Shown one piece after another: positions 11,639 to 64,000 of a stretch of DNA of 64,000 nucleotides (positions within the stretch are counted from its first letter, which is position 1; each line of letters opens with the position of its first letter). This stretch comes from Mesostigma viride (lineage: Eukaryota > Streptophyta > Mesostigmatophyceae > Mesostigmatales > Mesostigmataceae): positions 106,765 through 170,764 of the forward strand of contig RPFO01001239.1 in assembly GCA_009746045.1 (NCBI GenBank), given 5' to 3'. The notes under the pieces were generated by a model. The model made no database searches. It worked only from the letters and a program-made list of their open reading frames with translations, and was not told the origin of the DNA. The position numbers and the translations under genes were made by a program.

Positions 11639-12740
11639 GTAAGTATCTTTTATTTTCCGGTGCCTTGCTTGCATAAAAAGGCTTTCTAGCACTGATGAGG
11701 TTCCCCGACGGTGGCAAGGCTGCAGCGCTTGACTTTCTACCCTTCATCAATCAACCAACAACGATATTGATGTTGCATTCTATTCCTTTGAGGCTGAAAT
11801 AAATGCCCTGCCGCTGCACGTCGCGTGTTTAGTAGTAACTAAATAATATTGTTATAGTAATCAAATCTGAAACAATTCGACATGTTAACGTACACGTCCT
11901 TATCGGCTGAGAAATGGCTAGTAATTGGACAGGAAACACACGGTGGATGCATTCACTAAGCGACAACTTTCATATACAGATAATGCATTACATGTTTCAT
12001 GTAGTGACTTTGTAGTGCAGAGTCTCTTTTTGTAAATCCCTTGCTCTGTCGCGCATAGTTCAGAGTTTCAGCAAAGCCCTTTTTCGCTGCCAGAGAAAGC
12101 TCTGCCCATTTTGTATCTAACCAGGTACCACTGTATTGCCATCAGGTATCACAATCCCTGTATTGCCATGTTTCCCGTCTCCTGGCCATCCCCACCCTTG
12201 ATGGCGCCGTGTGCTAGACATTTTATTGATTCTATTTTGACATGTTTTTGCAGCGGTCTCGTCAGCTACCCGGGGCGCATGTTCCACCCGCCATGGGGCG
12301 CATGCACCGGTTGCAGTACCTGGGGCCCTTTTTGCTCTTATCCCCTCCACTCATGGCTGATTGCCCTGAAATGAGATGTTGCTTTCTTGCGGCTGCCACC
12401 TGCGTGGTATGGTTGCGGTGAAGCGCGACTCCTTTCTCTCTGTTCATTGCAACAAAGCCTCTTCTCATCATCACACGGGCGCTCGTGTGCACATTTACAT
12501 GCATGTCTGCATGTGTTCCTCTTGGCCTGGTTGGATGGCTGTTTATCTTGCGCGCGTGTTGGACATCCTGCCTGCACCACCGCCCTGGATGACGCCATCG
12601 CGTCCCCCCATCGCCTTGCCCTGCTTGCGTTGCCGACCGGCCTCCCCATGCAACCACGCGCAACCACGCGCACGCCTTGTGATGGACCCACCATGCGTCT
12701 GCGGACCTTGTGATGGATGCGTGGGATCGGCCGACCTCAG

Positions 12741-12767
12741 ATGGGGTCCAGCATCGGGCCCTTCCAG
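12741..12767 (+). CDS. Invertebrate-type-lysozyme-like protein, 27-nt micro-exon 2
   Basis: Nine codons (MGSSIGPFQ) sit between a CCGACCTCAG acceptor and a CAG|GTGCGT donor, phase 0 on both sides. The SxGPFQ motif directly follows the catalytic-Glu segment in this lysozyme family, and it is exactly what is missing between exons 1 and 3. The match of motif, phase and both splice sites makes this small exon convincing despite its size. Confidence 0.72.
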
Positions 12768-13169
12768 GTGCGTCCTCCGCATGATCAATTGTATACTAGT
12801 CTTCTGATTTGGATGTGCTAAGCACTTTTGGACTTTTGGATTGCGTCGCTGCGAGCCAGTGCACACGGAGTATGGGGTGGAGGGCTTTCGTTGTTGATAG
12901 GCGTTCCTTGTGATAGCGGTTTGGTCCCATTTTGTTGCTCTGCAGAATCTCAGGGGGCAAGAGATAAATGAGGTGGCAAGATATCATATGGCCATTCTCC
13001 TATCGGCATGTCACCAGCAAGGATTGCCCCCGCCCTGTGCGCACCAGCCCTTCCCTCTCTCCTCACCCTTAGCCCACTGCCCGCAACCCACTGCACCCGT
13101 GCGTCCCCTTTCTCGCCCACCCCTGAGCCTCACCTGATCCACAACGCACCGCGCATGACACAAAACAGA

Positions 13170-13268
13170 CAAAACACAGAGCCCCACGCACAACGCTCAA
13201 CGCACAACGCACAACGCACAGCGCACAACGCACAACACACAACGCAACACACAACGCACAACGCATAG
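13170..13268 (+). repeat. CACAACG microsatellite
   Basis: Degenerate repeats of CACAACG/CACAACGCA in the second intron of the lysozyme-like gene. Non-coding. Confidence 0.8.
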
Positions 13269-13383
13269 CATGACCCACACGCACGATGTGCACAATGCAG
13301 AATTCTCACAATTCACACCATGTATGACCCTTAACCCAAGACCCAACCAAAAACCAAAAACCCACAACTCACGGCACGCGCAG

Positions 13384-13626
13384 GTGAGCGAGGCCTACCA
13401 CCAAGACGCGTGGCGGATGCCAGCCCCTTGCCTCGAGCTGTACGCCAAGTGTCGCACGTACGCACACGCCGAGGCCACAGTCATGTCCTACTGGATGAAG
13501 TACTGCCCCGACGCGATGGCGGCGGCGGACTTTGAGAAGTTGGCCAAGACGCACAACGGGGGCCCGAACGGGATGGACCGGGAGTCAACGCTCTACTATT
13601 GGGGCAAGGTCAATAGCTACCTGCAG
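13384..13626 (+). CDS. Invertebrate-type-lysozyme-like protein, exon 3
   Basis: Eighty-one codons in phase 0 between a GGCACGCGCAG acceptor and a CTGCAG|GTGAGG donor. It begins VSEAYHQDAW, the continuation of the family pattern SIGPxQ-xxxAYxxDA, and later has AKTHNGGPNGMDRESTLYYW, which closely matches the family signature ARIHNGGPxG...T..YW. Three Cys remain in the exon, fewer than in animal enzymes. Exons 1-3 give about 168 residues. The 3' end of this exon, including its donor, is repeated in the intron that follows. A further 3' exon is expected but not located with confidence. Confidence 0.82.
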
Positions 13627-13757
13627 GTGAGGACAGTGGGAAAAGGTCAACAGCTACCTGCAGGGGAGTATAGGGGCAAAAGGTTGACAGCTACCTGCAG
13701 GGGAGGATAGGGGCAAAAGGTTGACAGCTACCTGCAGGGGAGGATAGTGGGAGTGTA
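13602..13757 (+). repeat. Four 36-38-bp repeats spanning the exon 3 splice donor
   Basis: The unit GGTCAATAGCTACCTGCAG|GTGAGG at the end of exon 3 is followed by three more copies with core GACAGCTACCTGCAGGGGAG. The later copies carry GGGGAG in place of the GTGAGG donor. The array thus started from the coding end plus donor. Confidence 0.82.
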
Positions 13758-13829
13758 GCCAGCACATTCACTCGGTATAGCGGGCGAGTGTCAAGAAAGG
13801 AAGCAGGCGTGTATATACTTCCTTGTGAC

Positions 13830-15080
13830 ATGTGCCGTTGCTTTATCAGTGGATGGGCGCGTATAGCTGTAGCGGCGCCGCATGGAAGCAGGCGTGTACA
13901 GTTGCTGTGTTGGTGGGTGGGCACATATAGCTGTAGCGGCGCCACATGGAAGCAGGCGTGTACAGTTGCTGTGTTGGTGGGTGGGCGCGTATAGCTGTAG
14001 CGGCGCCGCATGGAAGCAGGCGCATCTAGTTGCTGTGTTGGTGGGTGGGCGCGTATAGCTGTAGCGGCGCCGCATGGAAGCAGGCGTGTACAGTTGCTGT
14101 GTTGGTGGGTGGGCGCGTATAGCTGTAGCGGCGCCGCATGGAAGCAGGCGCATCTAGTTGCTGTGTTGGTGGGTGGGCGCGTATAGCTGTAGCGGTGCCG
14201 CATGGAAGCAGGCGCATCTAGTTGCTGTGTTGGTGGGTGGGCGCGTATAGCTGTAGCGGCGCCGCATGGAAGCAGGCGTGTACAGTTGCTTTGTTGGTGG
14301 GTGGGCGCGTATAGCTGTAGCGGCGCCGCATGGAAGCAGGCGTGTACAGTTGCTGTGTTGGTGGGTGGGCGCGTGTAGCTGTAGCGGCACCACATGGAAG
14401 CAGGCGCATCTAGTTGCTGTGTTGGTGGGTTGGCGCGTATAGCTGTAGCGGCGCCGCATGGAAGCAGGCGCATCTAGTTGCTGTGTCGATGGGTGGGCGC
14501 GTATAGCTGTAGCGGCGCCGCATGGAAGCAGGCGCATCTAGTTGCTGTGTTGGTGGGTGGGCGCGTATAGCTGTAGCGGCGCCGCATGGAAGCTGGCGCA
14601 TCTAGTTGCTGTGTTGGTGGGTGGGCGCGTATAGCTGTAGCTGCGCCGCATGGAAGCTGGTGCATCTAGTTGCTGTGTTGGTGGGTGGGCGCGTATAGCT
14701 GTAGCTGCGCCGCATGGAAGCTGGCGCATCTAGTTGCTGTGTTGGTGGGTGGGCGCGTATAGCTGTAGCGGCGCCGCATGGAAGCAGGCGCATCTAGTTG
14801 CTGTGTCGGTGGGTGGGCTCGTATAGCTGTGGCTGCGCCGCATGGAAGCAGGCACATCTAGTTGCTGTGTTGGTGGGTGGGCGCGTATAGCTGAGCGGCG
14901 CCGCATGGAAGCAGGCACATCTAGTTGCTGTGTTGGTGGGTGGGCGCGTATAGCTGTAGCGGCGCCGCATGGAAGCTGGTGCATCTAGTTGCTGTGTTGG
15001 TGGGTGGGCGCGTATAGCTGTAGCTGCGCCGCATGGAAGCTGGTGCATCTATCTAGTTGTGGGTGTTGGTGGGTGGCGCG
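13830..15080. repeat. 64-bp satellite, array 1 (about 19 copies)
   Basis: The unit runs GTTGGTGGGTGGGCGCGTAT... through AGCTGTAGCGGCGCCGC and ATGGAAGCAGGCGCATC. Units differ at a few sites (CAGGCGTG/CAGGCGCA, GCTGG/GCAGG). Because 64 is not a multiple of three and the unit has no stop on the minus strand in any frame, long open frames run through the array in every minus-strand phase; they are not genes. The same satellite recurs at 22393-22770. Confidence 0.95.
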
Positions 15081-25177: not shown

Positions 25178-25798
25178 TTAATCGGCTTTCTCTGAATATA
25201 GTTTGATTAACGCATGCGGGAAAGATAAGGCCGCTATGCCTTGGCCTGGATGTGGAAGGCTGTCTGCGACATGGGCTGACTAATTCGATCTGTACAAAGG
25301 GTTTCCTGCTCGCCCGAATTCTCCTTGGATGACCCGGTTGTTTATAAGGGTCAGTGGCTATTAATTAGCGGTCGGAGAAAATTAATTGTAGGTTTTATAC
25401 GACTTGCATGCTTGCAAAGATTCGTGTTTGGTTTCACCAGCTGACGTTAGGTGGGGACCTGTAGGGTCGGCTGGTTGCTTAACGAATCTTTGGCTGATTT
25501 GGGTTCTTTAGTGAGTCGTGATTAATTATTGTATAGTGGATTCGGACCGGCCCAAGGGGTCGATGGGTGAGTCTTATGTTTGTCAGTCTTGGGAACCTTG
25601 TACAACTACCGGTACGGTTAACGCACTAGCCTGGGGGTGCGTGGCCACGTTGTTTGTAGTGGCGTTTTCAGCACTGCATGTTCAGGCTGGCGTGTGACGC
25701 ATGCCGGTGTTAATTAACTTAGGATGATGTAAGCTTGTGTGTCGGCGGGCCATGCCTTAAGCAAGCTAGGCAGGCAATGATCCGCAATTGTTTCTTTC
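25178..25798 (+). repeat. 600-bp dispersed repeat, copy B
   Basis: Begins TTAATCGGCTTTCTCTGAA and ends CCGCAATTGTTTCTTTC. Direct copy of 26759-27401, inverted copy of 23416-24016. Contains TTTATAAGGGTC and TTATACGACTTGC, which would be TATA-like if it is an LTR. Typical TG...CA ends are not evident. Confidence 0.88.
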
Positions 25799-47805: not shown

Positions 47806-48048
47806 GATGGTTTGCAAGAATAGGTGGCAGGTAGTAATGAAGGAGACCACCCCCAACTCAGTGGGGGCTCCGCATCTGACCAAGTATGGCATTCACAGTG
47901 ATTCGGGCCGTGGTGCCCACAACCCCGTAACTAGGTCTAAGATAGCTAGCTCCATCCATCCCATCCCATCCCATCCCACTCCACTGTACTGAGGACTTAT
48001 GCTCACGTAACGCTGTTACGTGTTAATTAATTAATTAATTAATTAACC
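47806..48048 (+). mobile_element. LINE fragment 1, 3' end only (plus strand)
   Basis: Begins in the last codons of the LINE protein (NRWQVVMKETTPNSVGAP) and runs through the 3' UTR (GATTCGGGCCGTGGTGCCC, CTTATGCTCACGT) to a (TTAA)n tail at 48023-48048. Strong 5' truncation. Confidence 0.82.
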
Positions 48049-48193
48049 CGTGTTTTTTTTTAGAACGCGATATATTGCGTTGTGAGCTATTTATAGAACA
48101 CGTCATAACATCTAGGGAGATTTTGTTTTCATAGTCATGTGTATACTTTTCTGAAAGCCCATAAATCAAAGGATTTTTTGAGCTTCTCAGACC

Positions 48194-49585
48194 TGCAAAT
48201 TAATTAATTAATTAATTAATAGACACATGACTGCGTCACGTGAGCATAAGTCCTCAGTGGGAGGGGAACATGGAATGGGATGGAACGGATTAATTTATTA
48301 ATTAAGTAATAGACACGGATGGAACGGATTGTGTAAGCTATCTAGGTCCTAGTTACAGGGGTGTGGGCACCGCGGCCCGAATCCCTATGGAGCCCCCACA
48401 GACTTGGGGGTGGTCTCCTTCATCACTACTTGCCATCTATCCTTGCGTACCATCGGCCTCCATATTACAGACAAACCAGGAGGCTGCCCGGGCGTGAGCC
48501 CGTCGCGTCTAGTGTAGCACATGTCCATGCCGAGTCTATCACGAATTAAACGTCCACGGGTGGCGGCCCTGCCGCGCGCGGCCGGGGGCACGCCAGGTGA
48601 GGACATATTGCCCAGGCTGGGCGGGTTTGGTGCCAGCTAGTCTATCTGATGTGTCTACCTGATCTGTGCGGGCCAGGTGCCCGGCTAGGCCCAGGCGCCT
48701 GTGCCTAATAATGTGGGAAATATAGGGCAAATCAGCGTACGAATCCTCATTACTAATGTGCAAACCAAAGGGGATGTTAAGGGCCTTGCGCAGCATCTTG
48801 GTGACGGTGCCGTCGAGTCGTTGCTCCAGCTCCTGCGTCAGTGTCCAGGTCTCGGCGCCGTAGGTCAGGATCGTCAGAATGACGACCTTGAAGAGGTCAC
48901 GCTTGAAGATCCGGGGTAGGGCGGGGTTGCTCCACCAACTGCGGTGGTCATGGAGGTGCGCCCACGCCATGCCGATCCGTGTCGTCAGGTCGTCCTCGCA
49001 GTCGGGAAGCCAACTGCCGAGCAGCTTGAAGCGGCCTGAAGTAGGGTAGGGGACCTCGGTGTCGTCTAAGAGGCGGAGTGTGGGTGGGGGCCCTCAGTGC
49101 CATGCCGAGGGCCAGGGCCTCCGTTTTGGGGCTGATTTCTAGACCAACCGCCTGAGCCTCGAGCGCCAGGCAGTCCAGCCAAAGTTGGGCAGACTCCGGC
49201 TTCTCGATGAGCGTGATGTCGTCGGCATAAATGAGGTCAGCTAGTAAATTCTGCTTGTTAGTCGGCCCCCCTTCTCCAAGCTCGTTCGTGATCGCTAGGC
49301 CGGGGACACGGCCTGCAATGCTAGCAAAGCGAGCACGTGCCTGGCGCATAACATAATCCACTACAATAATAAACAGGTACGGCGACAGGACGCAACCCTG
49401 CCAGACGCCGTTCTGCAGTGGGCATGGCGGGGTAATGCCGTGTTGAGTGCGCACCGAAGTGGTCGACCCCTCATACAGCGTGCGGATGACGGTAATCAGG
49501 GGAGTGGGGACGCGAGCGCAAGCAAGTACAGCCCATAGAGCGTCCTAGAGGACAGAATCAAAAGCCTTGATGAAGTCGACCTACA
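48194..49585 (-). mobile_element. LINE fragment 2 with truncated reverse transcriptase (minus strand)
   Basis: Runs from 49585 down to a (TTAA)n tail at about 48194-48216. The 5' end is cut inside the reverse transcriptase, as usual for target-primed insertion. The 3' UTR matches fragments 1 and 3 and contains a short internal duplication with TTAATTTATTAATTAAG near 48290. Confidence 0.88.
48385..49585 (-). pseudogene. Non-LTR (LINE) reverse transcriptase, truncated
   Basis: Reading the minus strand: VDFIKAFDSVL (catalytic Asp block) with a stop right after, then GVWQGCVLSPYLFIIVVDYV and LLADLIYADDITLIEKPE, where YADD is the active-site box. Then follow the C-terminal markers LTYGAETWTLTQELEQRL and RRLGLAGHLAR, and after a frameshift RPMVRKDRWQVVMKETT. 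At least two frame breaks and one stop make it inactive. The endonuclease and ORF1 are absent. Confidence 0.92.
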
Positions 49586-49744
49586 AAATGCTAATTCATT
49601 AGAGAGATACACTGGTTTGAATACAGGGGGGTCTGACCATGACCCCGATTTGTTGACCCTATGTAGGTCACAAGTCATGTGCTCATTCACAAATGGTTCA
49701 TGAAAAAATATCTGGCTTCTTGCACGAGCTATGGTGTCAACCTT

Positions 49745-49912
49745 CCGCGCCATGACCGCGTATGGCATTCATAGCGATTCGGGCCGCGGTGCCCACACCC
49801 CTGTAACTAGGACCTAGATAGCTTACACCATCCATTCCATCCCATGTTCCCCTCCCACTGAGGACTTATGCTCACGTGACGCAGTCACGTGTCTATTTAT
49901 TAATTCATTAAC
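49745..49912 (+). mobile_element. LINE fragment 3, 3' UTR only (plus strand)
   Basis: From TATGGCATTCATAGCGATTC through CTTATGCTCACGTGACGCAG to a degenerate tail TATTTATTAATTCATTAA. Same family as fragments 1 and 2. Confidence 0.82.
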
Positions 49913-51339
49913 CCATAGTCCGTAAACTACCCGACAGGTCGGGTAGTTCGACTAACGGTCGAATTTCGCGCCGCGCCGTGAGCGCCGCGCCACTTGTGAC
50001 GGATGTCAGTGGTCCGGTGGGTCGGGGAACACTTAGGGACTGTCAGAAGGATCGATACACCTGCCCAGGAATAAGTAAATAGTTTGATCAAAGTATCTAC
50101 ATTTGTGGCAGAAATTAGATACTGACTAGACTAGATGTTGTGGAGTTTTACGGAATGAGTTTTCCGTCAAGGAATAATTAGTCCTTGTGTTAGCTGGTTT
50201 GCTACTTGGACAATTTTGTTGTGATTGGTCATAACTTGTGTAGACCACGTGGTGGACACGCAGTGAACACACATGGCGTGTGGCATGCACACTCTGCTAC
50301 TGTCCGCTAGCTCGTCATTTGTATATAATGATGTGACCATGTTCATTCGGGCTTTCTTACTATCTCGCACTGCTTCCAGCAGCTGGTCCTCTGGCCGAGG
50401 CCAACATTTTCGAGGATGAGCAAGTTTGCCGTATGATATTATAAGGAATAATTTTTTGTTATTCTGACAGGGACGAAGCCGATGCATAGGTTTGGGGGTA
50501 ATATTCGCCATAGCCTGGTAATTACAACGTGCATTGAGAATGTATCACGTGACTTTGGCGGGAAATTTTCGCTCGCGCGCGCGTAATGAGATATGGCTGC
50601 CAACATGCCGCTGTTACGAAATTTTTGCGTCTCACGGCTTGAAGCGGTTCAGAATGTTGCTCAGAATGACGATGCATAATTTTCGTATGTAGGTCAGGCA
50701 CGGCCAGATTTATAGGGTTGGGAAAATACAGGTAGGAAAATATAACTTTCCTGGTCGTCAGGTGAAGATGAGTCATAACTTATCATAGGTCGATTTTCTC
50801 CCTATGGCTGGGCAATCTGCGCCAGCCCGGGCATCCAGTTTGGGTAAGGGACGTCAGCTGCAGCGTTTGCTGAGAATGCGGACTAGTTTAGTAGCCATCT
50901 TTGCACGGAACATCGACCTGGTAGTCATGGCGGATCATGAAGTATGCGGCTATGGCGGCCTTTGCATGTAGAGCATCCGAGTATGTGTGAGATATGAGGG
51001 TCCCGGCCAGCGAAATACGGATAGGGCATGAACGAGCCAGGTACGACAACGTATTTGCGTGTTGTTTGCAGCGGAATACGTATCCCATGCATTATAAATG
51101 ACGATTTTATACATGCATATTTCAGCAAGTTCCATGCCTGTTGTAAAGAGTGGTATTAGCCCTGAAAGTGCCCAGTTTTTGGCATTTCTTTGGAGTACAC
51201 CACTCCGTCAGTGCAGGTAGGCAACGTGTTTGTATTCCAGCACTTTTGGCAGCCTTGGATAGCTAGTTGTTATAATGCATTATTGTGTTGCATGTCATAG
51301 ATAGCTGTTTACACGCACGTAACCCACACACATGTATTA
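49913..51339. other. No gene recognised
   Basis: Open frames are short and lack motifs or convincing splice sites. Confidence 0.4.
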
Positions 51340-51437
51340 ATAAATAAATAAATTAATTAATTAAAATTAATTGATTAATTAAAATTAATTAATTAATTAA
51401 TTAATTCATAGACACGTGACTGCGTCACACATGTATG
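51340..51437 (-). mobile_element. LINE 3' tail remnant with long (TTAA)n tract
   Basis: TTAATTAA repeats of about 65 bp followed by CATAGACACGTGACTGCGTCAC, the reverse complement of the LINE 3' end (GTGACGCAGTCACGTGTCTA). Confidence 0.7.
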
Positions 51438-53419: not shown

Positions 53420-54473
53420 TGTCACGGACGCGAGCTGTGTCATCCGGGCGCCCACTATGCATGCACAAGACCGGTGACGTGCGCAAGGAATTTGTTTTCT
53501 GCGCATTTTCGACAAAGGCTAGTGACCGGGGGGGGGACACTAGCACTTACAGCATAAGAGCGGACGAAAGTGCACGTGCGCGCGCGCCGGGCCAGGCACG
53601 GCTGGGCGCGCAGCACTGACGTACTTGAGCGGACGGCAGCACAAGTGCGCAGCGTCGAGAGAATCATACGCGAGTTAGTGGACAGCTGGAGCTGGAGCTG
53701 GAGCTGGAGCTGGACTGCTGGACTTCAACAGCGCCGAGGCTATTGACAGGCCAGGTGTCTTTGTGGTGTAGAATAGCGGGTCAACGTTATGAGGACTGGA
53801 CAGAAAATGGAAAAGCACAATTTGCGGTGCGGAGCCAGATCGCTGGAATGAATGCGAAATCGCTGGCAGCCCTACAAAGGGATTTCTTCTAGAAAGGAAA
53901 GATTAGAAGCAATGTTTGCTGGGCCACTCACACGCAAGGTGTGAGCGTGCAGATTGTTTGAAGGATATTATGCTTCGACCTTGGTGGTCGTGACTCAATG
54001 CCGGATCCTCTAGGAGATGAGATCGGCAACAGGGTAGCAATTTAGATTTGTCGGGATGCCTTCCTGCTTTTGTTGGCATGTGTGGTAGAAAGCCAGGACG
54101 GCAACTGGAATGCAGTTTCTATTTGCATGGTTCAGGCAGCAAGATAGTTTGGGCATTCCTGGCTGGACTGACAAGTGTGGCGTGTGTCATGCGTGTGGCA
54201 TGACGAATGGTTTGGTTCATATAGGACTCTCACGTAGCGTGTAGTCTCTTCGAGTCTCTCGTTAGTGGCCTTCGTGTTTCTCCCTTTCCTTGGGAGCAAG
54301 GCCGGTAGCATGTCATGGAGCGCTGCCTAACTGCGGGCTCGTGAGCATGGAGTGCATCGATATTGAGACTATCAACGTGTTGTAATTGTATTAACTTTCT
54401 CAATAAATTCCGCATGTGCGGCTTCATCATCAGACTGTGCAAAGTGTGTGTTTGAAAGCATTATTCTATAGCA
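53420..54473 (+). repeat. 5' LTR of the Ty3/gypsy element (3' limit uncertain)
   Basis: Starts TGTCACGGACGCGAG, a usual gypsy LTR start. The part 53420-54155 is repeated inverted at 61007-61751. It contains (GGAGCT)n at 53685-53712. A possible AATAAA lies at 54401 and a possible CA end at 54472, but the second copy is truncated before these, so the 3' limit is inferred. No convincing primer-binding site was found. Confidence 0.68.
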
Positions 54474-54841
54474 GGGGAGGCAATAAGGTGGTCATCAGGC
54501 ACGAGGGACAGTTCCTTGTCCTCGGCTGAGAGCCCTCCTTTCTTTACTCGAAGAGACTACCCGGTAGTCTGCTTCCTTCTGTTCGAAGCCAAGACGTTGG
54601 CTTTAGTGTTTATCAACCATCAGCAGTACAGGGAACGGCCTGGCTGACAGTTTGTAAAGGAAGTGTCTTGAGACAGATTTTAAGAAAATAGAACTAGCCA
54701 GAATTTGCTGGCTCTTGTCTTTTTCTGGCAGGCTAGTCGAGTCGTTATCCTTGACGCCTGTTATAAAGCCTTTGGTTGTTGCTTCTTCTCAGCGAAACCT
54801 AGGCTTGTTGGTTCTTGTTTTGCCCATCGGTCAGCTGGTGC

Positions 54842-57800
54842 ATGCCACTGACGCGAGCGCAGACTCGAGCCATGGCGGATGCAAATAGAGCAGATGCCGA
54901 CACGTCCGCTCCGGGGTCGAATGGCGGGATTCCTCCCGCCGTACCCGCAGTGGGTGAGAGTCGCGACCAAGAAGCGCCGCTGAGTATGGTGGCGCTGTTC
55001 GCGCAGATGCAAGCGCAGATGCAGCAACAGTCGCAACAGTTGCAGCAGCAACTGGCGCTGCAGATGCGGGAAGTGACCGACAGATTGGTGGCCGTAGAGG
55101 GTCGTCATCTGCAGTCCACACCATGGGACGGGCAGGCATCGATGCCGGGCCCAAGTGGTGTTGCCGCGGAGCCGAGGGAGCGGGACCAGCCGCCAACCTC
55201 AGGTAATGCGGCGGGAAGGGCTCCGATGGAACCGGGGGTTTTGGCTGGGTCGCTAACCCAACACGACTTGCTTGGTGAGGCGGATGGTCAGCCACGGGGC
55301 GAGTATACGCTGGCGCCCAGGCGCCTGCCTTTCGATCAAGCGCGAGACGGATTGCACGAGGAGAACGGGGCAGGGCTGGCGCGCGCGATGGACCCACGCA
55401 GGGGTGCACCAGGACGCATGCTGCCAGGCGGGGTCTCAATTCCGTTTGGGCGAGGCGGTGGGGCGCTGACCGGCGGGTCGACTGCACGGTGGTCAAGTGT
55501 GCCAATCGGGCGCATTCCGCCCATGGAGGACATAACCACGCCGCTGGCTTTCCGAGTACGGGAGGCAGCACGCCCAAGCACGCTGGCGCAGGGACGCGCA
55601 GCTCAGCGACCGCCGGAGGATGCCGATGGGGTGCAGTACCCGCAAAGGGTGCGCCTCATACCTGAAGGCGCGAAGATGCCCACCCTACCACGGGTGGACA
55701 TGCGCGAGAAGTTCTCCACAACCGGCAATCTGGCCACGCTGGCGCAGGCCTACAACGCGTACAAGTCATGGATTGATCTGCAATACATGACTACGCAAGG
55801 CGCTGTAATGCATGAGTTTGTGATGAACAACATGCATTTCTTCTTTCACGGCCTTACGCTGAGGCGAGTGGCTAGGCTGGTGGAGCAGTGGAGAGAGGTC
55901 TCGCTGTACACGCGTCACACGGACGTGTGGTTCGGCTTCGACGGGCGTGGCCAGCCCGACTATGACAACATCATGTATGGTGTCGACCCTGCCGAGGAAC
56001 TGTGGGGCCTCCTTCGCCAGGAATACCCGGTGGAGACCATCAAGGCAGAGCGTGAGTGGCGCAGTTTCAAGATAGCCGAGGGTGAAACCCCGGAGCAATC
56101 TTACGAGCGCCTCATGGAGTTCGCCGGCGAAGTGGAGGACTGGTCCGAAAAGCTGGCGTGTCAGAAATGGCTGCAAGCGCTAGGCTCCAAGGAGATGGAG
56201 CTGCCCACGCCGCCCAACGGCCAGCCGTGGCGATTGCGGTCACTGTGCATTGAGGTCAGGGCCATGATGCGACGACACGCGCAAGGCCGGATCTCGGTAA
56301 GCACGGTGGTGGCCGAGCTGCAGGCCAAGGTCGACGCGCTGACCAAGGCCAAGTCGGGTGAGTCGTCTGCCACAAGACAAGCGCGCCCGCAAGGCGGCCA
56401 CGGTGCTAGCAGGAACCAAGGGGGGTCTCGCAACGCCTCATCGCATGATGCAACCCAGGGTAACGCCGCTGGCGGCAACAAGGACGCTGCCGCTCCGCCG
56501 ACGCGAGCTGGGGGGGGCACGTCCTCACAGACGGGTAGGACGGATGCGCGCAAATCGGGCTGCTTCCTGTGCGGTCAGGATGGGCACATCAAACGTGATT
56601 GTCCCAAGGCGTGTAAGAAGTCACACCCGGCAACGGTCCGCACCCATCTGGCGGGGCAGTGCCCAGCGCCGGGGGTGCACTTTGCGGACGTGGAGGACAA
56701 GAAGGTGGACGCGGGGGTGGTCATCATTCAGCCGACGGGCGAGGCGGGGGGACGTGAAAGGGAGGATGGGGGATCGCAGGTTCAATACAGGGACGAGGAC
56801 TTCTGGCGGCCAGCCGACGTGATGGCGTTGGACATCCACGCAGTTGGCGCGCGAGGGAAGCAAGCACGTGCACCGCCGTCGTTTCAGGTGGGGCAGCCAA
56901 GTGAGACTGTGGGGCAGCTGCCTCAGTCCTTTCGCATGGCTCCCGCTCGGACCGGCTCCACCCTGGAACACGACAATCCTGCTGGGGCAGAGCAGCGGCG
57001 CAGGTTGTTGCCATTATACCCTATGCCGTCGGTCGTGGACACGCCTGCATACACTCCCCGGCAAGTGGTCGAGTGGTTCGGTCAGCGGGCCGTGGAGGTG
57101 CTCGGGTCGCATGCGTCAGAGGTACAGCGGTACGCTGACACAATGGACGCCCGTAGGTTGCACAACGCTGAGACAGCCACATTTGTCGGGCATCGCCCTG
57201 CATCGGCTTCGGTAATCGTGGGTCATGTCGCTCATGGTGTCTTGGACAACGCGCAGCGGGCGTGCGTAGTGCCTAGGGCACCCACTGTCACCTCATATCC
57301 GGATGGCGAGCCAGCAATGGCGTTTCAGGCGCAGGGGCACGGGGAGCCCCTGAGCAACGTGGTCTACAGTACTGACCATGAATTGGTCGTGAAACTGGAC
57401 AGCGGGGCCCAGCCACTCGTTATCAGTGCTCGGCTGGCCCAGTTGCTCAACCTAACCAGGGAGAATGGCGGGCTGCGGGACAGTCATGTGTCCGTGGCGG
57501 GCTGGCAGGGCCCTGCCGCTAAACCCTTTGCCATGACTGCGGTCCAGGTAATGGTCATCCTCAACCCGCTCAGGCCATCCGACATGGCCTGCATCCCTGT
57601 GAATGCCCTTGTGACCGAGCAGTCATCGTATGACGTGCTGGTCGGCATGGAGGTCATGTTTCCCATGCGGCTCGAGGTACGCATGTGGGAAGGCCGCGCG
57701 GTGTACATCGTTGACAGAGACGGTGACGCCATGCGCCAAGCAAGCATCCCGGTGAGCTGCTACAGCTCGGACACTGGGGCAGTGCGTGTCTCGACGGTCA

Positions 57801-58135
57801 ACCGGGTCGAGGCTGGCTCGCACGACGCGGTGGTGGAGGTACGGATGGGGGAGGTCACGGCAGCTGGGGGGGCTGTGCGTGATAAGCATCGGCCGTGCAT
57901 CCCAACAGCGCTGGTGGGACGGGCCTCATTGCACAGCACGTGGGCGGCGCGACAGCAGCCGCAAGCGCGGCAGGCCCTTTTGCGTCAGCACGTCACCAAC
58001 GCGGTGCGGCAGCAACAACTCTCTCATCTCCCGCGGCAATCGCAGTCCAAGTGGCTGTCGCGACAACCGAAGGTAACTTCTGTGCCGATGTTGTGGCAGA
58101 GTCGCGGGTCTTGTCCGAAGGGGTTGTATTGCTAG
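54842..58135 (+). CDS. Ty3/gypsy Gag-protease polyprotein
   Basis: ATG at 54842 (MPLTRAQTRAMADANRADAD); about 1,097 codons to a TAG at 58133. Residues about 50-90 are a Gln-rich coiled coil (AQMQAQMQQQSQQLQQQLAL). A retrotransposon Gag capsid region follows (about 290-480, with EWRSFKIAEGETPEQSYERL). A CCHC zinc knuckle CFLCGQDGHIKRDC is at 56561-56602. The aspartic protease has its active-site DSGA at 57398-57409 and a downstream hydrophobic YDVLVGMEVM block. The frame is intact throughout, so this part is young. The last 60 codons overlap the start of the methyltransferase in another frame. Confidence 0.93.
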   Translation: MPLTRAQTRAMADANRADADTSAPGSNGGIPPAVPAVGESRDQEAPLSMVALFAQMQAQMQQQSQQLQQQLALQMREVTDRLVAVEGRHLQSTPWDGQASMPGPSGVAAEPRERDQPPTSGNAAGRAPMEPGVLAGSLTQHDLLGEADGQPRGEYTLAPRRLPFDQARDGLHEENGAGLARAMDPRRGAPGRMLPGGVSIPFGRGGGALTGGSTARWSSVPIGRIPPMEDITTPLAFRVREAARPSTLAQGRAAQRPPEDADGVQYPQRVRLIPEGAKMPTLPRVDMREKFSTTGNLATLAQAYNAYKSWIDLQYMTTQGAVMHEFVMNNMHFFFHGLTLRRVARLVEQWREVSLYTRHTDVWFGFDGRGQPDYDNIMYGVDPAEELWGLLRQEYPVETIKAEREWRSFKIAEGETPEQSYERLMEFAGEVEDWSEKLACQKWLQALGSKEMELPTPPNGQPWRLRSLCIEVRAMMRRHAQGRISVSTVVAELQAKVDALTKAKSGESSATRQARPQGGHGASRNQGGSRNASSHDATQGNAAGGNKDAAAPPTRAGGGTSSQTGRTDARKSGCFLCGQDGHIKRDCPKACKKSHPATVRTHLAGQCPAPGVHFADVEDKKVDAGVVIIQPTGEAGGREREDGGSQVQYRDEDFWRPADVMALDIHAVGARGKQARAPPSFQVGQPSETVGQLPQSFRMAPARTGSTLEHDNPAGAEQRRRLLPLYPMPSVVDTPAYTPRQVVEWFGQRAVEVLGSHASEVQRYADTMDARRLHNAETATFVGHRPASASVIVGHVAHGVLDNAQRACVVPRAPTVTSYPDGEPAMAFQAQGHGEPLSNVVYSTDHELVVKLDSGAQPLVISARLAQLLNLTRENGGLRDSHVSVAGWQGPAAKPFAMTAVQVMVILNPLRPSDMACIPVNALVTEQSSYDVLVGMEVMFPMRLEVRMWEGRAVYIVDRDGDAMRQASIPVSCYSSDTGAVRVSTVNRVEAGSHDAVVEVRMGEVTAAGGAVRDKHRPCIPTALVGRASLHSTWAARQQPQARQALLRQHVTNAVRQQQLSHLPRQSQSKWLSRQPKVTSVPMLWQSRGSCPKGLYC

Positions 58136-59531
58136 AATTGTTTGCTGGGATGGGAGGGGGGCTGGCTGGCTTTCTCGCTGCAGGCGGTACGTGCCACACG
58201 TTGATCGCCGTAGAGCCGTCTCCTACCGCTCGGGCAGTGTATAGGCATCACTGTGCCCAGCTGTCTGCCCTGTATCCATCTCAGTTCCTCCGTCTGCGTG
58301 GACAGATCCGTTTGGGGAGTGCCCTCAGGATATCCGTGCTATTGGGGAGGTTCATGTGCGAGGCCTTTTGAGGCGGCACAAGAGGATAGACCTCGTCCTC
58401 GCGGGCTGGGAATGTCAAGGGTTGAGTCAGGCCGGCGTAGGACGCGGGCTTGCGGATCCTAGGAGCGGGTTGTTTTGGGATCTGCTTCGAGTCGTTGGAC
58501 TCTTGCAGCAGCTGCAGGACCAGCCACTAGCGTATCTTTTTGAGAACGTGGTGGCCGACGACAGCCCTCACGAGGTAGTGAGGAAGGACTGGGCCCAGAT
58601 CGTGGACATCTTAGGGGCACCAGTCACGTGCGACAATGCAGGATTGGGCGGGCTCACCCACAGGTACCGCGCATTCTGGACCAACCTTGCACTCACCACC
58701 ACCATCCAGGCAGTGGTAGATGCGATCACACGACAGCACGACGGCATGCCCGCGGAGGTGGCGCTGCCACCACATTTGGTCACGCAGCGGGTAGACGTCG
58801 CCGATCGGCACCCTTACGCGCCCGTCAATCACGTAGGTAAGCCTATGTGCGCTCTTCCCACCTTGGTTAGTTACCAGGGGTCATCGGCCTACAGGGACCG
58901 GGGCAAGGGTTTGGTATGGGACACCGGTACGGGTTTGTTGGTGCAGCCGCCCGCTGAGTTTCGGGAGGTGAGCATGGGGTTCCATGTGGGGGCGTCCGCC
59001 GCTGAGGGGGTTTTAGAGGCCACTAGGTGGTCTCTCGTTGGGCAAGCCATGTCAGCCTTCCAGGTTGGGTATGTTCTGCGGGCCGCAATGCAAGTGCGCC
59101 AGGGTGGGGGAGATATCCCCACACCGCCACCGCCTGTCAGTGCCCACGCGGCTGGTGTCCGGCCAACAGCGTCCGGCGGCACTGGGTCGCCATGGAGATC
59201 GCGGCTGCTTCAACTATGGAGCGTTATCCTCATGACGTCCTTGTTGTCCAGCACGGTGTTCGCTGGAGCGCCCACCCTGCAGCAATCGGTCGGTCGCGCA
59301 GTCCGTGCCATTCAGCAGGTGAGCGTCACACCCGGTGTAGCCGCATTTTCCCTTTTCCACGATGCCGCTGTCCGGGGGCCTTGTCTCGACAGTAGGAGTG
59401 CCGCAGTCGCAGATCCTGCTGCCTCTCACATATGGGCCATAGGTGAGCACCTCACCGCCACGCAACGCAAGGCTATGGAGCACTGGTTGCATTCTGCACG
59501 CTCAGTTTCGCTTTCAGCAGTGAAGAACTAG
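58077..59531 (+). CDS. C5-cytosine DNA methyltransferase domain of the retrotransposon (one frameshift)
   Basis: Motif I is LELFAGMGGGLAGFLAAGG at 58132 (SAM binding). An acidic VEPSPTARAVYRHH follows, as in motif II. Motif IV is LAGWECQGLSQAG with the catalytic Cys codon at 58413-58415; the family normally has PCQ, here it is ECQ. Motif VI is LFENVVADD at 58542. Motif VIII-like NAGLGGLTHRYRAFWTN follows near 58640. The C-terminal motif X-like part is RWSLVGQAMSAFQVGYVLRA near 59025. One frameshift near 58285 separates motif I from motif IV; from there to the TAG at 59529 the frame is open. When intact it would transfer methyl from SAM to C5 of cytosine. It lies between protease and reverse transcriptase, so it is part of the pol region. 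Confidence 0.92.
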
Positions 59532-59551: not shown

Positions 59552-60888
59552 ATGGGGGTCCCACTAGATACGGATCAGCCCTTATTCAGGCGGCAGCATA
59601 GGCTGAGCTTGGCTGAGCTGGAATTCGTAGATGCTAACTGTCGAGAGCTAGAGGCAGCTGGGATCATCCGCGCTTCATCCTCCAGTTATGCAGCTGCCAC
59701 GGTGGTCGCACCCAAGAAGGATACCATCACAGGCGAGTGGACAGGTATGCGCATGGCCACTGACCTGCGTCAGCTGAACGCGCACACTCCTGTTGATAGG
59801 TACCCCATGCCTCGGGTCGATGATGTTTTGGATAAAATATCTCCCCAGGTCAAGTATGTGTCGTCGCTAGATTTGCGTAGCGGCTTCCATCAGATCAAGG
59901 TCGTAGAGGCAGATCAGCGCAAGCTGGCCTTTTGGGGTGGGACCCGTCTGTACGAGTGGGTTCGCATGCCATTCGGACATCGCAACGCTAGTGCGGTGTT
60001 CCAACGTGCCATGGACCAGGTGCTGGCAGGGTTGCCATTTGCAGCCTGCTACATAGACGATGTCATTGTCTTTAGCGAGACATTTGACCAGCACTTAGCT
60101 CACCTCGATCAGGTTCGGATCGCCCTAGATAAGGCCAACCTGCGGCTGCACCCTGAAAAGTGCAAGTTCGCCCAACAGACCATAGGGTTTCTTGGTCATC
60201 AGATTGTACCAGGTGGCCGGACCCCTGAGGCAGCCAAAGTGGAAGCCATCAGCAACGCCGCAGTGCCCATCGACATCTCGGGGGTGCGCGCGTATCTCGG
60301 GCTAGCTGGCTATTATCGAGGATATATTCAGAATTTCAGCACCAAAGTCAAACCCCTGACTGAGTTGTTGAAGAAGGGCAATGTCTGGGCGTGGGGTCCG
60401 GCTCAGCAGCGAGCCATCGATACCATCAAACAGGAACTGACTGCCGCTCCTATCCTACGCGCCCCCGACTATGCTCTGCCCTTCATTCTTTACACCGATT
60501 GGTCCAAGGTAGGCCTAGGGGCTGTGCTAGCACAAAAGGACGATGCGGGGCGCGAGCATGTTATCGCGTACGCTAGTCGGAGTAACAACTCTGCCGAGAG
60601 TCGGTACTCTTCCTACGAGGGGGAAGCGTTAGCCGTTGTGTGGGCCATCAAGCACTTCAGGCCATATCTCTTTGGGCGGGTGTTCACACTTGTCACTGAT
60701 CACCAGCCCTTATTGTGGTTGATGACCAGCGACAAACCACGGGTAAGCTGGCCCGGTGGGCAATGATCATTCAGGAGTACCACCTGACAATCGTCCATCG
60801 GCCAGGTGTGGATCACTCCAACGCGGACGTCCTGTCCAGGTATGCTCCCTACCAACCACTGTTGACAACACTGGTGCGCGGGCCCTAG
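59552..60888 (+). CDS. Ty3/gypsy reverse transcriptase and RNase H (one late frameshift)
   Basis: From ATG at 59552 (MGVPLDTDQPLFRRQH) the reverse transcriptase reads without a break: RMATDLRQLNAHT, SSLDLRSGFHQIKV (first Asp), MPFGHRNASAVFQRAMD, and ACYIDDVIVFS (YIDD at 60050). Then KCKFAQQTIGFLGHQI and YLGLAGYYRGYIQNF follow. RNase H has its acidic residues in LYTDWSKVGLG, YEGEALAVVW and LVTDHQPLLWL. At about 60738 a single-base frameshift occurs; the true continuation is GKLARWAMIIQEYHLTIVHR and SNADVLSRYAP, stopping at 60886. No integrase follows on this strand. It copies element RNA into DNA. Confidence 0.95.
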
Positions 60889-61006: not shown

Positions 61007-61751
61007 ATGTGCCCAAATATCTTGCTGCCTGAACCATGCAAATAGGAACTGCTTCCGTTTGCCGTCCTGGCTTTTACCATACACATGCCAACAAAAGCAG
61101 GAAGGCATCCCGACAAATCTAAATTGCTACCCTGTGCCATCTCACTCCTAGAGTCCGGCATTGAGTCACGACCACCAAGGTCGAAGCATAATATCCTTCA
61201 AACAAATCTGCACGCTCACACCTGCGTGTGAGTGGCCCAGCAAACATTGCTTCTAATCTTTTCCTTTCTAGAAAGAAATCCCTTTTGTAGGTCTGCCAGC
61301 GAGTTTCGCATTCATTCCAGCGATCTGGCTCCGCACCGCAAATTGTGCTTTTCATTTTCTGTCCAGTCTCATCAACGTTGACCCGCTATTCTACACCACA
61401 AGGAGACCCTGGCCTGTCAATAGCCTCGGCGCTGTTGAAGTCCAGCGTCAGCTCCAGCTCCAGCTCCAGCTCCAGCTGTCCACTAACTCGCGTATGATTC
61501 TCTCGACGCTGCGCACTTGTTGCTGCCGTCCGCTCCAAGTCGTCAGTGCTGCGGCCCAGCGTGCCTGGCCCGGCGCGCGCGCACGTGCACTTTCGTGCCC
61601 TCTTATGACTGTAAGTGCTAGTGTCCCCCCCGGTCATATTTTAGCCTTTGTGTCGAAAAATAGCGCAGAACAAACAGAATTCCTTGCGCAGCAGTTCACC
61701 GGTCTTGTGCATCATGTGGCGCCCGGATACACATGCTCGCGTTCCGTGACA
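61007..61751 (-). repeat. Inverted LTR copy, truncated at its 3' end
   Basis: On the minus strand it starts TGTCACGGAACGCGAGC at 61751 and matches 53420-54155 with moderate divergence up to 61007, where homology stops abruptly. It lies downstream of the integrase on the same strand, as a 3' LTR should. Confidence 0.85.
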
Positions 61752-62270
61752 GCTGGCGTCTGCGTACCCACAATCTCCGCGCCACCAGGCGCTGGCATGC
61801 TCAGCTTTGGTAAAACCCCAAATGAGCTGAGCGGACGTGCTGCCTACTGCGATGCCCGTGGGGGGCGAGGCTCTGTCCATGATTCCCCCCCTCGTCAGCA
61901 CAGTGGTCAGCTGCTGCGCGCCCAGCCGTGGCCTTGCCGGCCCGGCGCGCGCGCACGTGCACTTTTCGTCCGCTCTTATTGCTGTAAGTGCTAGTGTTCC
62001 CCCCCCCGTCATAAGCCTTTGTCGAAAATGCGCAGAAAACAAATCCTTGCGCACGTCACCGGTCTTGTGCATAGTGGGACGCGCCGGATGACACAGTCGC
62101 GTCCGGGACAAGCTGTCCGTCTGCGTTACCACAATCTCCAGGCCGCCACATGGCGACTGGCCATGCCTCAGCTTTTTGTAAACCCAAATGAGCTGAGCTT
62201 GACGTGCCTTGCCTTAACTCATGCCCGGGGGGTGGGCGAGTAACCATGTCCCATGATTCCCCCCCTCGCT
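61540..62270 (-). repeat. Tandem duplication (unit about 372 bp) across the start of the inverted LTR
   Basis: Two direct copies (61540-61905 and 61910-62270). Each carries the LTR start (at 61751 and 62110), about 180 bp of LTR, and about 190 bp of sequence upstream of it, including a GGGGGGGAATCATGG purine-rich tract. Both copies contain CCCGGCGCGCGCGCACGTGC. Confidence 0.85.
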
Positions 62271-62989
62271 GGCTATCATGGCTCCTCACATGGCCAAGCC
62301 GACGTGCCACACCACAGCAGCTAAGGAAATGGTGACGCTAACTGGTTGCAACGGGGCAGCGACAACAAACTGGGCAAAACCACTGGGCCCGCATGGCCAC
62401 GGTGTGAGCGCTTGGCTGCAAGCAGTGCATGTGCCACCCACAATTCAGTGATCACACAGCAAACATTGGGTATCCCCCTGGTCTACGCGATGGGCAAACC
62501 TGACCACTGGTGCATCTTGACCGCCTGGCCGTTGTGCGGGGCGACGGTCAGGCATTAAGTTGTGGCAACGAACACGGACTGAGGTTTGCTTACGTTATCG
62601 GTGGTGCGACTTGCCGTCGACGGCCCTCCAAAATGGCGACCCCAGATGGCTTGGATGGCGACGAATCCGCAGATGGTCGCCCCGCAGTCACGTCAGAGTG
62701 TCGGTCAGCTCGTGCGGAGAATGCGAACTGCCCGGACGAAATGGCAAGCTGACGGGCATGTTTTAAGCGCCCCCCCGCGCTGAGCTAGCGCAGGGATCTC
62801 GGTGCCTGGGGCGATGAACAAGTTTGTTCATGGCGTGGGCATACCTTGCGGAAAGAGCCGCTCCGTAGGGTTCACCCTCAGCCAGAAACTGAACTGGCGT
62901 TTGTCAAAACGCCATAGGGGTGGGGTGTGCACTCTGCGCCTCCGTGGGGAGCAAGGGCGCGCCCAACAACAGGAAATACGGGGAGAAAC
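62271..62989. other. Between integrase and LTR; no domain recognised
   Basis: Expected to hold the integrase C-terminus and 3' UTR of the minus-strand segment. The reading is too decayed to assign. Confidence 0.4.
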
Positions 62990-63720
62990 AGTGCGAGCGA
63001 ACTCTGGGTGTGACATTCGGTAACCCCCATGGCTATCCCGCCAGTTCACGATGCCACATAGTGAATGATGCTGACTGCAGGCTCCCCACTTGCGCAAAGC
63101 CGCTTGACAGTCTGAACCAATTCTCTCAGCCAAACCATTGGCCTGAGGATGCTCCCGAGAAAGTGCACGTGATCAATGAGACTGCATTCCAAACAATCCT
63201 TAATTCCCCCCGAAACTCCCGCCCGGTCGGTGACCCGCTCCGCGGGCGGCCAACCTTGCGATATGTCGGCGAAGTGCTCATGGCGTGATGGCGGCGCTGC
63301 TTGTCAGCAATTTGGGGATGAGCTCGACCACTTGCCTAAAACTTCGACACACACCATGACATTACTTGTGGCCATCTGCACTTTCATCAAAGGGCCCACA
63401 CAGGTCTACGTGCCAGCGCGTAGAAGAAAGCCCTCTGAGCATGGGTTAGTAGGCTCATAATTCTTTCGCTCGTGGTCCACATTGAACCGTGCCTTCACCG
63501 GGCACACTGCGCGCGACAGCGAGCGACAACCTGCGCGACGTGGCACGCTGCCGTTCCACCAATAGAGGCGCGCCTTAGCGCCAAAGTGCGGTTACCACCC
63601 CAGGTGGCCTACCCGCCTCATGGCGTTGCTGGGACGATGGCGACGCTTGTAGGGCGGCGGGCCACCACCACTTGCGCTTGCCGTATCATTTTGTGGAGGA
63701 CCCGGCATCCCACGAGTAGG
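62990..63720 (-). pseudogene. Ty3/gypsy integrase, decayed (minus strand)
   Basis: Reading the minus strand across several frameshifts: GHLG and RLYWWNGSV, then AVCPVKARFNVDHERK (zinc-binding HHCC region). TRWHVDLCGPFDESADGHK carries the first catalytic Asp, then VMVCVEVLGKW. PPAERVTDRAG carries the second Asp, then LIDHVHF, and HPQANGLAERI the catalytic Glu, followed by VQTVKR. All three DDE residues are still visible but at least four frame breaks prevent expression. It is clearly more decayed than the gag and pol on the plus strand, which favours a separate older copy. Confidence 0.88.
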
Positions 63721-64000
63721 TGACCGCCCTATGTTGCACCCTATTCAAACTCAGCGTCACGCTGGGCTTGAGGACCAATCAACCGGGGTGGGGGGGAGCT
63801 ATCCTTGGACCTGCTCCCAACACACGCCCCATCGAGCCACACATCACCCATGTTGCATTCCACTGTGAGGATGGCCAAAAACAACAACCACCTAGAGTGC
63901 TAGGTTATCGTGCCAAGGTTTGTCATGTCAAAGGACGGACAATTACCTCCTCCAACGCGAGGAGGCCAGCTGCAGGGCGTGAAGGGAGAAGGGTGAACTG
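63721..64000. other. End of window; possibly upstream pol linker
   Basis: On the minus strand this lies just upstream of the integrase zinc region and may be the RNase H-to-integrase linker. No motif is clear. Confidence 0.3.

What the first reader, a model, noticed from the sequence alone, without database searches (positions are those of the whole stretch)
58077..59531. A cytosine-5 DNA methyltransferase built into a Ty3/gypsy polyprotein
Motif I (FAGMGG), the catalytic Cys loop, ENV and C-terminal motifs are seen in order between a gypsy protease and reverse transcriptase. Retrotransposon-encoded methyltransferases are known from dinoflagellates and charophyte algae only, as far as I recall. 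One in a genome with chlorophyte-like features could be an independent gain or extend the known group. Such an element could methylate its own DNA copies or alter the host methylome.
Basis: partly seen in the sequence, partly recalled or inferred. Interest (0 to 1): 0.92.

Follow-up and report, generated by a model that had tools for sequence, protein, structure and literature searches.

The report
DNMT3-carrying gypsy retrotransposons in Mesostigma
The window holds a damaged copy of an abundant jumping element from the green alga Mesostigma viride whose polyprotein carries its own DNA-methylating enzyme, and related elements with that enzyme occur in other green algae and in many metagenomes.

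Summary
A cytosine-5 methyltransferase domain (window about 58132-59105) lies between a gypsy protease and reverse transcriptase. The window copy is frame-broken and 3'-truncated, but 98 other rows of the same genome match the domain, 27 of them in an uninterrupted 2074-aa frame. The one such frame scanned with Pfam reads CCHC-DNMT-RT-RNaseH-integrase-PHD. The host is Mesostigma viride, a streptophyte: a Mesvir1 gene model matches four subfamily-C loci at 98.9%. The domain is DNMT3-class by profile and by the fold of a relative and under purifying selection. Relatives occur in Chlamydomonas (catalytic Cys lost), Haematococcus, Monoraphidium and unnamed or metagenome sources, mostly with the DNMT after RNase H. 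DNMT3 in a Gypsy Pol was already known from Klebsormidium (PMC5890265), so this is a new variant of a known kind. Further result: split A-coding-B-A-B repeats, TGTC...GACA ends with 4-bp target duplications (7 of 7 loci with both ends), an invariant B|A and a variable A|B junction fit integration from circular cDNA opened at an internal palindrome. What the methyltransferase does for the element remains inference.

The parts
53420..54549 (+). 5' terminal repeat A1 (starts TGTCACGG), 93% to repeat A of subfamily B
54803..58135 (+). gag-CCHC-protease open frame (CCHC about 56558-56608, protease about 57377-57655)
57886..58371 (+). DNMT piece 1 frame, with motif I (Pfam match about 58132-58248)
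58245..59531 (+). DNMT piece 2 frame: catalytic Cys loop, ENV, C-terminal part (domain to about 59105), then linker with hydrophobic segment
59447..60766 (+). reverse transcriptase (about 59711-60205) and RNase H (about 60392-60736)
61009..61010 (.). break: first copy stops (no integrase, no PHD) and an inverted copy begins
61010..62258 (-). inverted terminal-repeat pieces A-B-A-B of a second copy (61010-61751 A, 61756-61884 B, 61906-62110 A, 62112-62258 B)
62469..63999 (-). inverted 3' Pol part (integrase region) of the second copy, 90% to L033 with many indels; runs to the contig end

Best explanation
The window carries a broken copy of subfamily A of a multi-copy Ty3/gypsy-type retrotransposon family of Mesostigma viride. 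Its Pol polyprotein includes a DNMT3-class cytosine-5 methyltransferase between protease and RT, and a PHD finger after the integrase. SHOWN: the architecture in unbroken frames, many copies, catalytic residues kept, purifying selection, split repeats, 4-bp target duplications. INFERRED, fairly strongly: reverse transcription gives a linear cDNA with LTR = B-A; its ends are joined into circles (one-LTR, two-LTR, or mixed circles); the DDE integrase opens the circle at the fixed palindromic B|A site inside the LTR and inserts it. INFERRED, weakly: the methyltransferase, as part of Pol, methylates CpGs in the element's own new DNA (the circle and/or the fresh insertion), so that it is tolerated, protected or marked by the host; the PHD finger helps to choose the chromatin target.
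For: Domain order in a 2074-aa open frame (L009); a second contig gives the same residues over the 2043 aa compared, and 27 of 71 subfamily-B rows show a 2074-aa frame. DNMT profile against the PDB: DNMT3A 5e-17, DRM2 1.5e-12, best bacterial-type entry 2.7e-9, DNMT2 2e-5, DNMT1 0.035. Predicted fold of relative P0014: DNMT3A/B catalytic domains with target-normalised TM about 0.8, plus foamy-virus and Ty3 integrase. Catalytic Cys in 123 of 124 and Glu-Asn in 122 of 124 polyproteins. DNMT dN 0.20-0.32 (NG86) with dS saturated or not computable among subfamilies A, B, C. TGTC...GACA ends with perfect 4-bp duplications in 7 of 7 loci with both ends in hand, of 8 contigs fetched. Forms A-coding-B, A-coding-B-A-B and a composite of two elements all occur. 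B|A junction identical in 19 of 20 (subfamily C) and 90 of 90 (subfamily B); A|B junction has 10 variants in 27 copies of subfamily C, some with nucleotides from beyond the A end or a polypurine-like run; 13/27 against 1/20 variant in subfamily C, Fisher p=0.0014.
Against: The window copy itself cannot make the enzyme in one frame. No methylation data were examined for these copies; published M. viride 5mC is CG-dominated (PMC6947507, section 14) but not broken down by element in what I read. Motif IV is WECQ, not the usual PCQ, so activity is not certain. DNMT is less constrained than RT-RNase H (dN 0.20-0.32 against 0.10-0.13). The A|B junction could not be tested genome-wide in subfamily B (requests did not complete); the two in-hand subfamily-B joints are alike, which neither shows variability nor excludes it. 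The commonest A|B joint makes up 14 of 27. The structure is of a relative found in public data (P0014), pTM 0.43 overall, not of the Mesostigma protein.
Confidence: 0.75

Rival explanations
1. A host methyltransferase gene landed in one gypsy copy by chance.
For: None found; the window copy alone, being broken, could suggest it.
Against: 99 rows of the genome match the domain; DNMT, RT, RNase H, integrase and PHD share one frame in subfamilies B and C, and DNMT, RT and RNase H in a subfamily-A copy; related elements exist outside this genome.
Confidence: 0.01
2. The domain is kept for a non-catalytic (structural or nucleic-acid-binding) role or as an RNA methyltransferase.
For: Motif IV Pro is replaced in most members (WECQ in 78 of 124); the Chlamydomonas member lost the Cys loop yet still matches RT, RNase H, integrase and PHD models.
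Against: Cys kept in 123 of 124 and Glu-Asn in 122 of 124; closest structures are DNA enzymes of the DNMT3 class.
Confidence: 0.15
3. The Mesostigma elements captured a DNMT3 independently of the chlorophyte elements.
For: Different position in Pol (before RT versus after RNase H); Mesostigma DNMTs form their own clade (100/100) and the after-RNase-H DNMTs another (99/99). Four proteins of unknown context (P0123, P0124, P0126, P0127) match the profile strongly, and any of them that is free-standing would weaken the case for a purely element-borne lineage.
Against: Apart from those four and two Mesostigma gene models (E 4e-54 to 9e-121), the next protein of the 34 in the profile search is at 1.2e-8; shared unusual WECQ motif; DNMT distances track integrase distances (Mantel r 0.50-0.57 over 28 rows).
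Confidence: 0.35
4. The terminal structure is a rearranged ordinary LTR element or a DIRS element moved by a tyrosine recombinase, not circle integration by the DDE integrase.
For: The repeat order A-coding-B-A-B is that of DIRS elements, as PMC5890265 says for KnitGypsy.
Against: Pol has H2C2 and rve integrase, and no tyrosine recombinase hit in the gag and pol frames scanned (other frames and strands not scanned); 4-bp duplications and TG...CA ends in 7 of 7; B|A nearly fixed, A|B variable.
Confidence: 0.12

Closest known systems
KnitGypsy-Dnmt3 of Klebsormidium nitens (de Mendoza et al. 2018, PMC5890265; sections 6, 9, 11 and passages read)
   Same: DNMT3-class methyltransferase inside the Pol of a Gypsy element of a streptophyte alga; purifying selection; repeats arranged as in DIRS with Gypsy domain content.
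   Different: Host is Mesostigma; three subfamilies; a PHD finger after the integrase (the term PHD does not occur in that main text); WECQ motif. The domain order and copy number of KnitGypsy are in figures that I could not see, and no direct sequence comparison was possible.
SymbioDIRS-Dnmt3 and SymbioLINE-Dnmt of Symbiodinium (PMC5890265)
   Same: Retrotransposon-borne DNMTs; the DIRS type has DNMT3 in Pol.
   Different: Tyrosine-recombinase or LINE elements; here a DDE integrase.
PHD-finger Gypsy polyproteins of chlorophytes (P0003 Chlamydomonas, P0061/P0101/P0102 Haematococcus, P0075 Monoraphidium)
   Same: RNase H, H2C2-rve integrase, PHD (RT in all but P0101 by the listed Pfam domains) and a homologous DNMT region.
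   Different: DNMT lies between RNase H and integrase; in Chlamydomonas P0003 the catalytic Cys loop is gone.
Foamy-virus two-LTR circle cleavage by integrase (PMC1180852, abstract and outline read)
   Same: Integrase cuts a palindrome at a circle junction.
   Different: There the palindrome is the LTR-LTR end joint; here the fixed palindrome lies inside the cDNA LTR (B|A) and the end joint (A|B) is elsewhere.

Membership tests
Ty3/gypsy (Metaviridae-type) LTR retrotransposon | Pol order PR-RT-RNaseH-INT with H2C2 and rve integrase after RNase H | tested here: met
   RT-RNaseH-INT (L009, L012); protease by a weak Pfam match in the window copy and a DSG stretch seen in L009
Ty3/gypsy (Metaviridae-type) LTR retrotransposon | two full identical LTRs flanking the element | tested here: not met
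   split repeats A-coding-B-A-B or A-coding-B; TG...CA ends and 4-bp duplications are met. Called gypsy-type by its domains, not by ordinary LTRs
DIRS / tyrosine-recombinase retrotransposon | tyrosine recombinase, no DDE integrase, no target duplication (recalled definition) | tested here: not met
   rve integrase present, no PF00589 hit in the gag and pol frames scanned; duplications in 7 of 7
DNMT3-class cytosine-5 methyltransferase | best profile and fold match to DNMT3, motifs in the canonical order (not rearranged as in DRM) | tested here: met
   (fold of relative P0014)
DNMT3-class cytosine-5 methyltransferase | Pro-Cys in motif IV (recalled as near-universal in cytosine-5 methyltransferases) | tested here: not met
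   WECQ in Mesostigma; Cys kept, Pro replaced
DNMT3-class cytosine-5 methyltransferase | methylates DNA cytosines | not testable with these tools
   needs an assay
KnitGypsy-Dnmt3 lineage | common descent of DNMT and RT with the Klebsormidium element | not tested

The most novel reading that the evidence does not exclude
DNMT3-bearing, PHD-tipped gypsy elements are an old and widespread lineage of green algae on both sides of the chlorophyte-streptophyte split. The methyltransferase was moved once inside the polyprotein, and the elements integrate as circular cDNA opened at a CpG-rich internal palindrome (CGCGACAG|CTGTCGCG). The element's own methyltransferase could mark that circle, including the cut site, and so couple self-methylation to integration.
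Probability: 0.2. Interest if true: 0.88.

Novelty: new variant of a known kind. Interest (0 to 1): 0.7.

Why it matters
It extends retrotransposon-borne DNMT3 from two reported lineages to the streptophyte Mesostigma and to chlorophytes and metagenomes. This makes the question 'what does a retroelement gain from its own DNA methyltransferase?' testable in a species with many near-identical copies and a published bisulfite data set (PMC6947507). The junction data add a second testable point: a Ty3-type integrase that appears to use a circle junction inside the LTR, which would explain why such elements look like DIRS elements yet carry a DDE integrase.

Tried and rejected
Rejected: chance insertion of a host gene; tyrosine-recombinase mobility; reading the -1 frame changes of the window copy as programmed frameshifts, because a sister copy is open through DNMT and RT and the differences are an excess of indels. 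Inconclusive: PsbO of the host against the PDB lists no organisms and does not place the host; the host was placed by the Mesvir1 gene models instead.

Led nowhere: integrase-PHD profile in viral contigs and genome contigs, no relative; DNMT profile in viral contigs gave 427 relatives, the best 80 kept, with best segments of 26-41% identity, not used further; no rooted RT tree, since no DNMT-free relative was in hand. The Mantel test of DNMT against RT is weak without the Mesostigma rows (r=0.34, 30 of 2000 permutations as high), so some module exchange is possible. YN00 dN/dS failed for all but one pair; NG86 is quoted. The quick DNMT tree (54 rows) left the element clades unresolved among each other; the careful tree (31 rows kept of the 65 prepared, most free-standing and many long-branched or similar rows dropped, P0003 among them; bootstrap not fully settled) places P0002 and P0126 outside a weakly supported group (85/76) of Mesostigma, P0127 and the after-RNase-H clade. 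The genome-wide A|B junction search for subfamily B did not complete.

Paper searches behind 'not found in print': (open-licence PubMed Central only; one search was about the assembly). Among the listings and the passages that I read, none describes DNMT-bearing gypsy elements in Mesostigma or chlorophytes; PMC6338049 (passages) speaks in general of DAM/DCM-encoding Ty3/gypsy and DIRS elements, green algae included; PMC12344493 (section 5 and passages) mentions DNMT3 in retrotransposons of streptophytes and dinoflagellates, as 'Copia and DIRS'. PMC12477816 and PMC8226300 (passages) mention no cytosine-5 methyltransferase in gypsy elements.

Full report
WHAT WAS CHECKED. The window is the last 64 kb of contig C1010 of a 439.9-Mb assembly in 2243 contigs. 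Translation and Pfam confirm, in order, a CCHC zinc knuckle, a weak aspartic protease, a cytosine-5 DNA methyltransferase in two overlapping frames, RT and RNase H. The domain proper is about 58132-59105; 59106-59531 is linker.

THE COPY IN THE WINDOW. It starts with terminal repeat A at 53420 (TGTCACGG..., 93% to repeat A of subfamily B) and stops at 61009, after RNase H, without integrase or PHD. At 61010 an inverted second copy begins (repeat pieces, then inverted 3' Pol) and runs to the contig end. Its 5' 3.2 kb is 96% identical to a subfamily-B copy but its Pol only about 70%, so the copy or its subfamily is a mosaic. Against sister copy L033 it differs by 4 substitutions and 8 indel events in 3.86 kb, and the inverted stretch is 90% identical with more gap positions than substitutions (116 against 40). 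I read the frame breaks as indels of this copy or of the assembly. The published assembly used PacBio (SMRT) reads and is 441.8 Mb (PMC6947507, passages), which fits both size and error type.

THE FAMILY. A protein search with DNMT piece 2 lists 99 rows (98 of 561 first-look candidates scored, so a lower bound): 27 rows of the window's subfamily A, the window included (89-100% identity), 71 rows of subfamily B (70%) and one short fragment. 27 of the 71 subfamily-B rows lie in an uninterrupted 2074-aa frame. One of these scanned in full reads CCHC, DNMT, RT, RNase H, H2C2 and rve integrase, PHD (L009); a protease-like DSG stretch is visible before the DNMT. The Pol read from a second contig shows 0 differences over the 2043 aa compared. 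A subfamily-C copy has a 1642-aa frame from DNMT to PHD (L012). A subfamily-A copy has DNMT, RT and RNase H in one 1247-aa frame (L033). So the methyltransferase is a fixed part of Pol.

HOST. Two Mesostigma viride gene models (EukProt labels jgi/Mesvir1/17751 and 2372) came up in the profile search; the first is 98.9% identical to four subfamily-C loci. The host is Mesostigma viride or a close strain: a streptophyte, not a chlorophyte.

WHAT KIND OF METHYLTRANSFERASE. A profile of 10 element DNMTs finds DNMT3A first in the PDB (5e-17); entries named DRM2 follow at 1.5e-12 (and 4onj, named only 'DNA methyltransferase', which I recall to be a plant DRM, at 3.6e-15), a bacterial-type enzyme at 2.7e-9, DNMT2 at 2e-5 and DNMT1 at 0.035. 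A predicted structure of relative P0014 (DNMT region pLDDT mostly 80-95, whole-model pTM 0.43) matches DNMT3A/B catalytic domains with target-normalised TM about 0.8, and foamy-virus and Ty3 integrases for the rest. The Pro of motif IV is replaced by Glu (WECQ) in Mesostigma. Of 124 polyproteins examined (122 from the database, 2 from Mesostigma) the Cys is kept in 123 and Glu-Asn in 122; WECQ in 78, WPCQ in 19, eleven other forms in the rest. The exception for the Cys is the Chlamydomonas reinhardtii protein P0003. Between Mesostigma subfamilies the DNMT has NG86 dN 0.20-0.32 with saturated dS (2.7 or not computable), against dN 0.10-0.13 for RT-RNase H and 0.35-0.56 for the linker: constrained, though less than RT.

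RELATIVES. The first search found only three proteins; a second, with the DNMT of P0001, gave 122 proteins at E <= 0.001, 120 of them listed, from the 7984 candidates that shared most words. Orders over the 124: 103 have RT and/or RNase H before the DNMT (one by a weak RNase H match); 18 are fragments with DNMT directly followed by integrase; 2 (Mesostigma B and C) have DNMT before RT; 1 (P0002) has only the DNMT model hit, after a protease. In the careful tree the after-RNase-H DNMTs are one clade (99/99), Mesostigma another (100/100), P0002 and P0126 a third (100/98). By parsimony on that rooting the before-RT place is older and the domain was moved once, but two captures are not excluded, and P0126 and P0127 may be free-standing.

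ENDS AND INTEGRATION. Eight contigs were read on both sides. In the seven with both ends in hand (C111 shows only the 3' end) the element begins TGTC and ends GACA, flanked by a perfect 4-bp duplication in 7 of 7 (GGCC, TCTC, CATA, GGGG, AACC, TACT, AGCC). Three forms occur: A-coding-B (C224, C1579); A-coding-B-A-B (C1613; C777 and C1, whose first A carries an insertion or a deletion; C1690, whose last B is split by an insertion); and at C133 a composite in which B-A-coding-B-A of subfamily B sits inside the repeats of a short non-autonomous element, with one duplication around the whole. A polypurine tract (GCGAGGGGGGG) directly precedes B1, so the cDNA LTR should run B-A. Joining the cDNA ends gives an A|B joint; opening the circle at the palindromic B|A site gives the genomic order. 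The predicted contrast was found: B|A identical in 19 of 20 (subfamily C) and 90 of 90 (subfamily B); A|B in subfamily C shows 10 different joints in 27 copies (14 of one kind, 4 of a second, 2 of a third, 7 singletons), with TCCA additions from beyond the A end in 3 copies and a T-run plus G-run, the latter like the polypurine tract, in 1; Fisher p=0.0014 within subfamily C. The exact flanks demanded by the patterns mean that diverged copies are not counted. Foamy-virus integrase cutting two-LTR circle junctions is a precedent (PMC1180852, abstract). PMC5890265 notes DIRS-like repeats with Gypsy domains for Klebsormidium; in the sections I read it gives no mechanism for that.

FUNCTION. The shown part ends at conserved, selected catalytic residues inside Pol. 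Self-methylation of new element DNA is the suggestion of PMC5890265 for other elements and the most likely one here (my estimate 0.4 for this specific step). Published M. viride 5mC is mainly CG (PMC6947507, section 14), which suits a DNMT3-type enzyme but is not specific evidence.

NOVELTY. DNMT3 in Gypsy Pol is known from Klebsormidium. New here, as far as nine searches of open-licence papers show: the Mesostigma family, the chlorophyte and metagenome relatives with a second domain position, the Cys-less Chlamydomonas copy, and the junction evidence for circle integration.

Noticed in passing
G000: C35, C47, C64, C79, C340, C389, C815, C1517, C1809, C1935 (L002-L008) and others: Other multi-copy PF00145 genes: 10 rows with a 364-aa frame (in L002 next to a second ORF without a Pfam hit) and 17 rows with a 313-aa frame; they score far better against PF00145 than the gypsy DNMTs and look like further mobile DNMTs.
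   Followed up: no
P0003 (Chlamydomonas reinhardtii CHLRE_09g398141v5): DNMT region between RNase H and integrase has lost the catalytic Cys loop and the ENV motif while RT, RNase H, integrase and PHD models still match: a probably dead methyltransferase kept in an element.
   Followed up: partly
window 62469-63999 and contig end: Indel-rich sequence at the contig end compared with a sister copy, probably unpolished assembly in one or both; gene breaks there should not be over-read.
   Followed up: partly
G000:C133 about 12190-14671 and 25403-25493: A short non-autonomous element with the same kind of ends and polypurine tract surrounds a subfamily-B copy, the pair sharing one 4-bp duplication.
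   Followed up: yes
polyproteins, up to 260 aa before RT (window about 59200-59270): A hydrophobic, membrane-like segment precedes RT in 36 of 62 polyproteins against 48 of 419 random stretches.
   Followed up: partly
window 53420-56620: The 5' part of the window copy is 96% identical to subfamily B while its Pol is about 70%: mosaic origin of subfamily A or of this copy.
   Followed up: no
window 48021-51428: Six copies of a TTAATTAATT-rich 42-nt repeat upstream of the element.
   Followed up: no
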